This document shows positions 53,733 through 57,920 of a stretch of 64,000 nt of DNA, piece after piece. Origin of the DNA: Rhizobium sp. Q54 (GTDB lineage Bacteria > Pseudomonadota > Alphaproteobacteria > UBA2966 > CAIVPW01). The translations under genes and the position numbers were made by a program. Numbering within the stretch: the stretch's first letter is position 1; every line of letters starts with the position of its first letter. Under the pieces are notes generated by a model that worked only from the letters and a program-made list of their open reading frames with translations, had not been told where the DNA came from and made no database searches. The stretch covers positions 30,582 to 94,581 of the forward strand of contig CAMEYM010000001.1 in the NCBI GenBank assembly GCA_945947575.1. The letters run 5' to 3'.

Positions 53733-54068
53733 GTGGCGAAAGCGGAACTCGGAGCCAAGCGGGAATGCCAGTCCTGCGGTACCAAGTACTACGACCTCGG
53801 CAAGGAGCCGCCGGTGTGCCCGCGCTGTGGCACCGTGTACAGCGCCACAGCCGCTAAGGCCGCCTCCGCGCCCGCACCCGTCGAGAAGCCGAAGCCGAAG
53901 CCGAAGCCGGCGCCGCGCGTCGCGCCGGTTGCCGCCGAGGGCGACGAGGAGGCGGAGCCGACCGTCGCCGACGAGGAGGCCGAGTTCGTCGACGACGAGG
54001 AGGAGTTCGTCGAGGAGGAGGCCGAAGAAGAGGAGGCCCCCTTCGAGCCGGAGCCGGAGGAAAAGTAA
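53733..54068 (+). CDS. TIGR02300/FYDLN-type protein with acidic tail
   Basis: AELGAKRECQSCGTKYYDLGKEPPVCPRCGT; C-terminus almost entirely Glu/Asp. Confidence 0.88.
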   Translation: MAKAELGAKRECQSCGTKYYDLGKEPPVCPRCGTVYSATAAKAASAPAPVEKPKPKPKPAPRVAPVAAEGDEEAEPTVADEEAEFVDDEEEFVEEEAEEEEAPFEPEPEEK

Positions 54069-55746: not shown

Positions 55747-56625
55747 CTAGCGCCGGCGCAGCACCAAGAAGCGGATGTGGTAGGCGAACGGCGACAGCAG
55801 CAGGTTGCCGAGCACGTAGAAGGCGCGGAACGGTGGGAAGCCCTGGTGGGTCTCGACGTAGTGCAGAGCGCGGCCGAGCGGGCCGATCTCCTCGCGCAGT
55901 CCGATCATGCCGCCGCGGCCTTCCTCGTGCACGAGTTCGAAGCCGGCGCGGGCGAAATCCGCCGCGATGGTCGCGCTCGGAAACGCAAACTGCCAGAAGG
56001 CAGCGCGCTGCTCGGGGCCGTCGCGGTACTCCGGGTAGGCGCCGCGCCGGATCCCCAGCCGGTTGAGTGGCGACAGAGACGGGAAGGTCAGGAAGAGCGT
56101 GCCGCCCGGCCGCAGCACGCGCCGGATCTCCTCCTGAATGTTGCCATAGCCGCCGAAGAAGTGCTCGATGACGCCGAGCGACCAGTAGCCGTCGAAGCTC
56201 CCGTCACCAAAGGGTAGCCGCCGCACGTCGCCGCACACGATCGGCATCTCTGGCACCGCGGCGTGCACCGCGCGCACCGTCTCCGGCGCGAAATCGAGGC
56301 CGACCGCGTCGAACCCGGCGCGCCGCAGGGCATACACCTTGTCGCCAAGGCCGCAGCCGCCGTCGAGCACGCGCGCACCTGCCGCGAGGTGCCTCTTGCT
56401 GTTGCCGACGACGAACCAATTGCGCGGCGCAGTCACGGCGCGGCGCAGCGCGTCGTCGCCGCCCTTGGCGGCGCTATTCGCGCCGACGCCGCCCTTGGCG
56501 GCGCTATTCGCGCCGACGCGCCACCAGTCGTCCCATGCTGCCGTGGTGGCGGCGCGCCCGACGTACACGAGGCGGTCGTTCGCGCGGTCGTAGTAGCGGA
56601 CGTTGGTGGGCGGCGCGCCGGTCAT
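55747..56625 (-). CDS. Class I SAM-dependent methyltransferase
   Basis: VLDGGCGLGDKVYALRRAGFDAVGLDFAPETV, DGYWSLGVIEHFFGGYGNIQEEIRRVLRPGGTLFLTFP. Confidence 0.85.
   Translation of the reverse strand: MTGAPPTNVRYYDRANDRLVYVGRAATTAAWDDWWRVGANSAAKGGVGANSAAKGGDDALRRAVTAPRNWFVVGNSKRHLAAGARVLDGGCGLGDKVYALRRAGFDAVGLDFAPETVRAVHAAVPEMPIVCGDVRRLPFGDGSFDGYWSLGVIEHFFGGYGNIQEEIRRVLRPGGTLFLTFPSLSPLNRLGIRRGAYPEYRDGPEQRAAFWQFAFPSATIAADFARAGFELVHEEGRGGMIGLREEIGPLGRALHYVETHQGFPPFRAFYVLGNLLLSPFAYHIRFLVLRRR
56458..56517. repeat. Perfect 30-bp in-frame tandem duplication
   Basis: gccgcccttggcggcgctattcgcgccgac twice; encodes VGANSAAKGG x2. Confidence 0.95.
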
Positions 56626-56792: not shown

Positions 56793-57920
56793 ATGACCAC
56801 CACCTGGTTCGACGAGACGCTGTACCCGTTCTATCGCCAAGGCATCCGCGTCGACGGCGTGCTCTTCAAGGGCCAGACCAAGTTCCAGACCGTCGAGATC
56901 CTTCAGAACGAGCGCTTGGGGCGAGTGCTGTGCCTCGACGGCGTCGTGCAGACCACCGAAGGCGACGAGTTCTACTACCACGAGAGCATGACCCACGTGG
57001 GCATGCTGGCCCACGGCCGCGTCGAGAGCGTACTCATCATCGGCGGCGCCGACGGCGGCATCCTGCGCGAGGTGCTCAAACATCCGAACGTCAAGGAAGT
57101 GGTCATCGTCGACATCGACGCCGAGCTCATCGACATGTGCAAGGAGCACCTGCCGCTCCACCACGCCGGCGCGTTCGACGATCCGCGCACCATCAACCTG
57201 CCCGGCGACGGCGCCGCCTACGTCGCTGAGACCGACAAGCGCTTTGACCTGATCCTGGTCGATTCAACCGACCCCCAGGGCCCCGGCATCGTCCTGTTCC
57301 AGGCGCCCTTCTTCCGCAACTGCAAGCGCGTCATGAAGAAGGGCGGCCTGATGGTCACCCAGAACGGCGTGTCGTTCTATCAGCAGGACGAGTTGCGCGA
57401 CGCCCACCACCACCGCCTCGAGGTGTTCAAGAACGCTGGCGCGTATCTGTCGCCGGTGCCGTGCTACGTCGGCGCCCACATGGCGTTCGGCTGGGCCAGC
57501 GACTCGATGATGCTGCCGAGCATTCCCCACGCCACCATCGCGCGCCGCCTGAGGCAGTCGGGTATCGAGACGCGCCACTACAATCCAGAGATGCACGCGG
57601 CGTACTTCGCCATCCCGAACAACCTGCGGCCGTTGCTGGCCGAAGGCCACGAGCGCACCGGCCTCGTCGGCCTGGTGAAGGCGATCGCCAGCCGCCTGGG
57701 CCGCAAGGCCAAGAAGGCCGCCGCCAAGGCGGCCCCCAAGAAAGCCGCTCCCAGGAAGGTTGCCGCCAAGAAGCCGGCGGCCAAAAAGGCCCCCGCGAAG
57801 AAGGGCGCGGCGCGCCGGTCTGCCCCAAAGGCGAAAGCCAAGCGTTCTGCCCCCAAGGGACGAGCCGCAGCCAAACGGGGCACCAAGGCGAAGAAGTCGG
57901 CTCGTTCGCGCCGTTCCTGA
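56793..57920 (+). CDS. speE: Spermidine/polyamine synthase with histone H1-like basic C-terminal tail
   Basis: WFDETLYPFYRQGIRVDGVLFKGQTKFQTVEILQNERLGRVLCLDGVVQTTEGDEFYYHESMTHV, IIGGADGGILREVLKH; tail RKAKKAAAKAAPKKAAPRKVAAKKPAAKKAPAKK... Confidence 0.93.
   Translation: MTTTWFDETLYPFYRQGIRVDGVLFKGQTKFQTVEILQNERLGRVLCLDGVVQTTEGDEFYYHESMTHVGMLAHGRVESVLIIGGADGGILREVLKHPNVKEVVIVDIDAELIDMCKEHLPLHHAGAFDDPRTINLPGDGAAYVAETDKRFDLILVDSTDPQGPGIVLFQAPFFRNCKRVMKKGGLMVTQNGVSFYQQDELRDAHHHRLEVFKNAGAYLSPVPCYVGAHMAFGWASDSMMLPSIPHATIARRLRQSGIETRHYNPEMHAAYFAIPNNLRPLLAEGHERTGLVGLVKAIASRLGRKAKKAAAKAAPKKAAPRKVAAKKPAAKKAPAKKGAARRSAPKAKAKRSAPKGRAAAKRGTKAKKSARSRRS

What the first reader, a model, noticed from the sequence alone, without database searches (positions are those of the whole stretch)
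57702..57917. Spermidine synthase with a 72-residue histone H1-like tail
Seen: the SpeE ORF runs in frame without a stop into RKAKKAAAKAAPKKAAPRKVAAKKPAAKKAPAKKGAARRSAPKAKAKRSAPKGRAAAKRGTKAKKSARSRRS. Hand count: 21 Lys, 10 Arg, 25 Ala and no Asp/Glu in 72 residues. Established: AK/PAK-rich tails are the hallmark of bacterial H1-like nucleic-acid-binding proteins; canonical SpeE ends after the Rossmann domain. Inference: the enzyme may be tethered to DNA or RNA, producing a nucleic-acid-binding polyamine in situ, or the tail may be acylated as a regulatory switch.
Basis: partly seen in the sequence, partly recalled or inferred. Interest (0 to 1): 0.75.

Follow-up and report, generated by a model that had tools for sequence, protein, structure and literature searches.

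The report
Spermidine synthase with H1-like tail
A freshwater alphaproteobacterium makes a normal-looking polyamine enzyme (spermidine synthase) with a long, floppy, lysine-rich tail of the kind that sticks to DNA or RNA; the tail is real, kept in sister species and evolved at least twice, but whether it anchors the enzyme to nucleic acid has not been tested.

Summary
The 375-codon ORF 56793-57920 (+) is a SpeE (TIGR00417 and PRK00811 above cut-off; best structural match E. coli SpeE 3o4f). After the catalytic core (aa 1-283) and a short linker it runs in frame into a 72-residue tail with 21 K, 10 R, 25 A and no D/E. It is not a frameshift: four of five held genomes of the genus carry an 81-104-residue basic extension. 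The fifth genome and one family member carry short basic stubs. Closest-pair dN/dS in the tail is 0.11, and positive charge is kept despite extensive sequence turnover. A second H1-like SpeE tail arose independently in another alphaproteobacterial genus, which also shows a stub and tailless members. About 90 other SpeE loci inspected lack a comparable tail. Best reading: a disordered non-specific polyanion tether, as in PhaF, AlgP and HupB, on an oligomeric enzyme. Nucleic-acid binding is inferred, not shown. Against "spermidine made in situ": no AdoMetDC (SpeD) was found in any of the seven SpeE-bearing genomes of this family, although speD sits beside speE in nearly all other relatives. That SpeE-without-SpeD gap is unexplained. 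New variant of a known kind.

The parts
56793..57641 (+). SpeE core, aa 1-283: N-terminal tetramerisation beta domain (aa 5-56) and Rossmann aminopropyltransferase domain (aa 59-238 by Pfam, fold to ~283)
   Evidence: PF17284 52 bits, PF01564 177 bits; TIGR00417 281 bits vs cut-off 249.55, PRK00811 329 vs 260; AlphaFold pLDDT mostly >90, top PDB match 3o4f E. coli SpeE
57642..57701 (+). linker, aa 284-303 (EGHERTGLVGLVKAIASRLG); modelled as a helix at moderate confidence (aa 291-313)
   Evidence: alignment A2, model; helix amphipathicity not kept in species L003
57702..57917 (+). H1-like tail, aa 304-375, 21 K + 10 R + 25 A + 6 P, no D/E; predicted disordered (block-mean pLDDT about 49-64 beyond aa 310)
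   Evidence: conserved in genus
57918..57920 (+). stop codon TGA of the speE ORF

Best explanation
A genuine SpeE-type aminopropyltransferase carries an intrinsically disordered, roughly +31 lysine/alanine-rich C-terminal tail that works as a non-specific polyanion tether, most likely for DNA or RNA. SpeE relatives are dimers or tetramers (prior knowledge of solved structures; not tested for this protein), so each enzyme particle would carry two to four tails, giving avidity and keeping it on the nucleoid or RNA pool. Shown: the ORF, core family, tail composition, predicted disorder, conservation in the genus, retained charge, and a second independent gain. Inferred: binding, localisation, and that placement of the enzyme is what is selected.
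For: Tail present in 4 of 5 genus genomes, stubs in G004 (17 aa past the core) and family member G007 (22 aa). Tail dN/dS 0.11 in the closest pair, core 0.06. In a neutral-drift simulation the chance of keeping net charge >=25 is 0.006 and 0.0002 at the divergence of L002 and L003, whose observed tails (slightly longer segments) have net +27 and +37. Second, independent H1-like tail on SpeE of genus g181: 4 long tails, 1 stub, 4 tailless; two changes on the tree, each group on its own supported branch. Tail predicted disordered. Precedents: PhaF, AlgP and HupB tails of K/A/P make-up bind DNA and fix location (PMC3574117, PMC9239181, PMC5676037); K/R-rich prokaryotic low-complexity regions are enriched in DNA/RNA-binding proteins (PMC6821194).
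Against: No binding or localisation data. Tail sequence and length turn over fast (dN/dS up to 0.85 between distant pairs), so low-complexity expansion could also keep the composition. Tail is dispensable: absent or a stub in relatives. Another enzyme in the genome has a short basic tail. No dcAdoMet source found.
Confidence: 0.5

Rival explanations
1. The tail binds another polyanion, chiefly polyphosphate granules (as AlgP does) or acidic membrane lipid through the helical linker plus basic tail, and so places SpeE elsewhere than on the nucleoid.
For: AlgP, with a KPAA-rich H1-like tail, associates with polyP granules and needs its tail for granule spacing (PMC9239181). Linker modelled as a helix, amphipathic in three of four species.
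Against: Linker amphipathicity lost in L003. No polyP gene analysis done. Same charge logic fits nucleic acid equally.
Confidence: 0.17
2. The tail is a nearly neutral low-complexity extension grown by codon-repeat expansion past an old stop, tolerated because it does not harm the enzyme, perhaps aiding solubility.
For: Stepwise stub-to-tail series in two clades; fast turnover and length change; tailless SpeE is the norm; AroQ of the same genome ends in a basic extension.
Against: Low dN/dS in the closest pair (0.11) and retained charge against the drift model; two independent gains of the same composition on the same enzyme.
Confidence: 0.25
3. SpeE here no longer makes spermidine: with AdoMetDC gone it was kept for another job (other donor, or as a binding protein).
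For: No SpeD in any of 7 SpeE-bearing family genomes; family-wide changes G86A, V112L, Y174F at positions otherwise at least 97% conserved.
Against: Catalytic motifs intact, including D87, whose exchange in plants turns the enzyme to SAM-dependent methyl transfer (PMC3725402); core under strong purifying selection; G86A and L112 also occur in L019, which has SpeD; an ODC-like gene is present in most of these genomes.
Confidence: 0.15

Closest known systems
SpeE spermidine synthase (E. coli, PDB 3o4f; TIGR00417)
   Same: Whole core aligns (about 42-46% identity, TM-score to target 0.93-0.96), catalytic motifs kept
   Different: 92 extra C-terminal residues; GGADGG in place of GGGDGG/A; no SpeD partner found in the genome
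PhaF phasin C-terminal domain (Pseudomonas putida)
   Same: Disordered lysine/alanine-rich tail on an oligomeric protein; works by non-specific DNA tethering (PMC3574117)
   Different: PhaF is a granule protein with a regular repeat; here an enzyme with irregular KA motifs; binding untested
AlgP (Pseudomonas aeruginosa)
   Same: H1-like K/A/P tail (PMC9239181)
   Different: AlgP tail is 154 aa of near-perfect KPAA repeats; binds DNA and associates with polyP granules; not an enzyme
HupB/MDP1 of mycobacteria
   Same: PAKK/KAAK motifs at C-terminus (PMC5676037)
   Different: HupB core is itself a DNA-binding HU domain
AdoMetDC-SpeE fusions (Ca. Pelagibacter)
   Same: SpeE with an extra domain (PMC11107197)
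   Different: The extra domain there is catalytic and N-terminal

Membership tests
SpeE spermidine synthase | Curated family models above cut-off | tested here: met
   TIGR00417 281.2 vs 249.55; PRK00811 329.2 vs 260; PF01564, PF17284
SpeE spermidine synthase | Catalytic and dcAdoMet-binding residues (Q32, YHE 62-64, D87, D107, D139, D157/D160) | tested here: met
   Kept in all 7 family members in alignment; roles from solved relatives and PMC3725402
SpeE spermidine synthase | AdoMetDC in the same genome to supply the donor | tested here: not met
   No PF02675 match in 8 family genomes; control rang in 8 of 14 known genomes; SpeD profile at E<=10 gave only one weak match, E 0.07, in G003. MAGs 79-98% complete. 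PF01536 search uninformative, as its control was silent
SpeE spermidine synthase | Spermidine-forming activity | not testable with these tools
   No assay; hence filed as SpeE by sequence only
Bacterial H1-like tail | K/A/P-rich, no acidic residues, PAKK/KAAK-like motifs | tested here: met
   21 K, 25 A, 6 P, 0 D/E in 72 residues; KPAAKKAPAKK present
Bacterial H1-like tail | Intrinsic disorder | tested here: met
   Block-mean pLDDT about 49-56 beyond aa 320 in the AlphaFold model, a proxy only
Bacterial H1-like tail | Nucleic-acid binding | not testable with these tools
   Inferred from composition and precedents
PhaF/AlgP tail | Tandem KPAA repeats | tested here: not met
   Irregular motifs, no regular tetrapeptide repeat by eye in the tail sequence
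SAM-dependent methyltransferase derived from SpeE (PMT-like) | Loss of the GGGDGG aspartate | tested here: not met
   D87 kept in all 7; PMC3725402

The most novel reading that the evidence does not exclude
In this family SpeE lost its donor-making partner SpeD, and in one genus it became a nucleic-acid-tethered protein whose main role is on the nucleoid or RNA: a polyamine enzyme turned nucleoid-associated protein, or an aminopropyltransferase fed by an unknown dcAdoMet source.
Probability: 0.15. Interest if true: 0.7.

Novelty: new variant of a known kind. Interest (0 to 1): 0.45.

Why it matters
H1-like tails are known on nucleoid and granule proteins. No paper on a spermidine synthase with one was found in the held library (open-access papers only). 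Two independent gains on the same enzyme suggest that placing a polyamine enzyme near nucleic acid may be useful, which is directly testable. The missing AdoMetDC is a separate puzzle: either these bacteria have an unrecognised way to make dcAdoMet, or SpeE does something else.

Tried and rejected
Frameshift or read-through artefact: rejected, as the tail is in frame in four species. Chance reading of GC-rich DNA: rejected by dN/dS and the gene survey. Tail shared by recent transfer with other genes of the genome: a BLAST of the tail against the genome found only itself and three weak matches, E >= 0.07; BLAST is a poor tool for low complexity. Tail common to SpeE in general: rejected. Tail tied to SpeD loss: rejected, since genus g181 has tails with speD adjacent. 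Methyltransferase conversion: disfavoured by D87. Class 2 AdoMetDC (PF01536): search uninformative, as the control was silent. The third PF02784 gene (L136) was seen but not identified further. No paper on an H1-tailed SpeE was found.

Full report
What is there. The ORF at 56793-57920 (+) encodes 375 aa. Residues 1-283 are a SpeE-type aminopropyltransferase: TIGR00417 281 bits (cut-off 249.55), PRK00811 329 bits (260), PF01564 and PF17284. The nearest solved structure is E. coli SpeE 3o4f. Then come a linker (aa 284-303) and the 72-residue tail named in the finding; its count is exact (21 K, 10 R, 25 A, 0 D/E). AlphaFold gives a confident core, a moderately confident helix at aa 291-313 and a low-confidence, extended tail.

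It is not an artefact. The window's genome (G000, 2.49 Mb, 40 contigs, 95.7% complete) has one SpeE. Four of the five held genomes of the genus carry an 81-104-residue basic extension from the TGL linker on (net +27 to +37). The fifth has a 17-residue stub ending RRAAKRKA, and family member G007 has a 22-residue stub AKPKARAKAAKPKARRSR. The gene order speE, hsp20, ptsN-like gene is kept across the family, with rpoN after them wherever the contig reaches it. In the closest pair dN/dS is 0.06 in the core and 0.11 in the tail; in distant pairs the tail turns over quickly (0.3-0.85) with many in-frame length changes. A neutral-drift simulation loses most of the charge at these distances (mean net +16 and +11; chance of net >=25 is 0.006 and 0.0002), whereas the real tails hold +27 and +37 (the real segments are slightly longer than the simulated 72 residues). 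Selection seems to act on composition, not sequence; repeat expansion could contribute.

How widespread. A search with a profile including the tail hit 152 of 387 alphaproteobacterial genomes and 62 of 399 genomes across the phylum at E<=1e-40 (the two samples overlap). About 90 loci were inspected individually, including those whose match ran past residue 300. One further lineage has an H1-like tail: genus g181 (G216 and kin), with four long tails (about 38-54 aa), one 15-residue stub and four tailless members. On a SpeE tree the tail trait needs two changes, and the two clades lie far apart, each on a supported branch. In both clades tailless or stub members branch beside tailed ones, which suggests growth from a short basic stub. 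No plasmid-borne SpeE covers the tail.

How special within the genome. In about 428 genes called on 459 kb, only this gene and one protein of no Pfam family (G000:C1:171483-172298, between recR and an RmuC-like gene) end in 60 residues with at least 40% K+R and no D/E; type II dehydroquinase carries a shorter basic end. So the tail is rare, but not unique to polyamine metabolism.

A second anomaly. Nearly all other alphaproteobacterial SpeE loci have speD (AdoMetDC) adjacent, including the sister family in the same order and the tailed genus g181. In the window's family, none of eight genomes has a PF02675 match, though seven have SpeE. An alphaproteobacterial SpeD profile at E<=10 gave only one match, E 0.07, over a third of the model. 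All eight are MAG-quality genomes (79-98% complete), so a gene consistently missed in binning cannot be fully excluded. The family's SpeE keeps its catalytic residues, including D87, the aspartate whose loss turns plant SpeE to methyl transfer (PMC3725402), but has family-wide G86A, V112L and Y174F. The first two also occur in a SpeD-bearing relative, so they do not prove a new function. Most of these genomes have a second PF02784 gene resembling ornithine/lysine decarboxylases, so putrescine may be available while the aminopropyl donor has no known source.

Mechanism. Tails of this make-up bind DNA non-specifically and fix location in PhaF, AlgP and HupB (PMC3574117, PMC9239181, PMC5676037); AlgP also associates with polyphosphate granules. 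The best reading is that this tail is a disordered polyanion tether on an oligomeric enzyme. Binding, ligand identity and benefit are inferred. The claim of spermidine made on the DNA is weakened by the absent AdoMetDC.

Verdict. Observation confirmed; interpretation partly supported; a new variant of a known kind.

Noticed in passing
family f1 genomes (G000-G004, G006, G007); window 56793-57641: SpeE without any detectable AdoMetDC/SpeD in seven genomes, although relatives carry speD beside speE; donor source unknown.
   Followed up: partly
L143:17481-18299 (G000:C1, about 171480-172298), minus strand: A protein of no Pfam family whose last ~95 residues are an H1-like K/A/P tail, between recR and an RmuC-like gene; N-terminal part is charged and low in hydrophobic residues.
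   Followed up: partly
L156:3753-4283, minus strand: Type II dehydroquinase (AroQ) ending in a basic extension NRTSRKAAPSRTPNKASRAARTATKKKRS, so another metabolic enzyme in this genome has a basic tail.
   Followed up: no
window 53733-54068 (+): FYDLN_acid family protein with a strongly acidic C-terminal tail (EEEEFVEEEAEEEEAPFEPEPEEK), about 2.7 kb upstream of the basic-tailed SpeE.
   Followed up: no
window about 56461-56520, in the minus-strand methyltransferase 55747-56625: A 30-bp tandem duplication (VGANSAAKGG twice) in the N-terminal part; the same gene in L003 and L005 appears 20 codons shorter.
   Followed up: no
L112 (G021): SpeD and SpeE lie in one 438-aa open frame, a possible SpeD-SpeE fusion in another alphaproteobacterium.
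   Followed up: no
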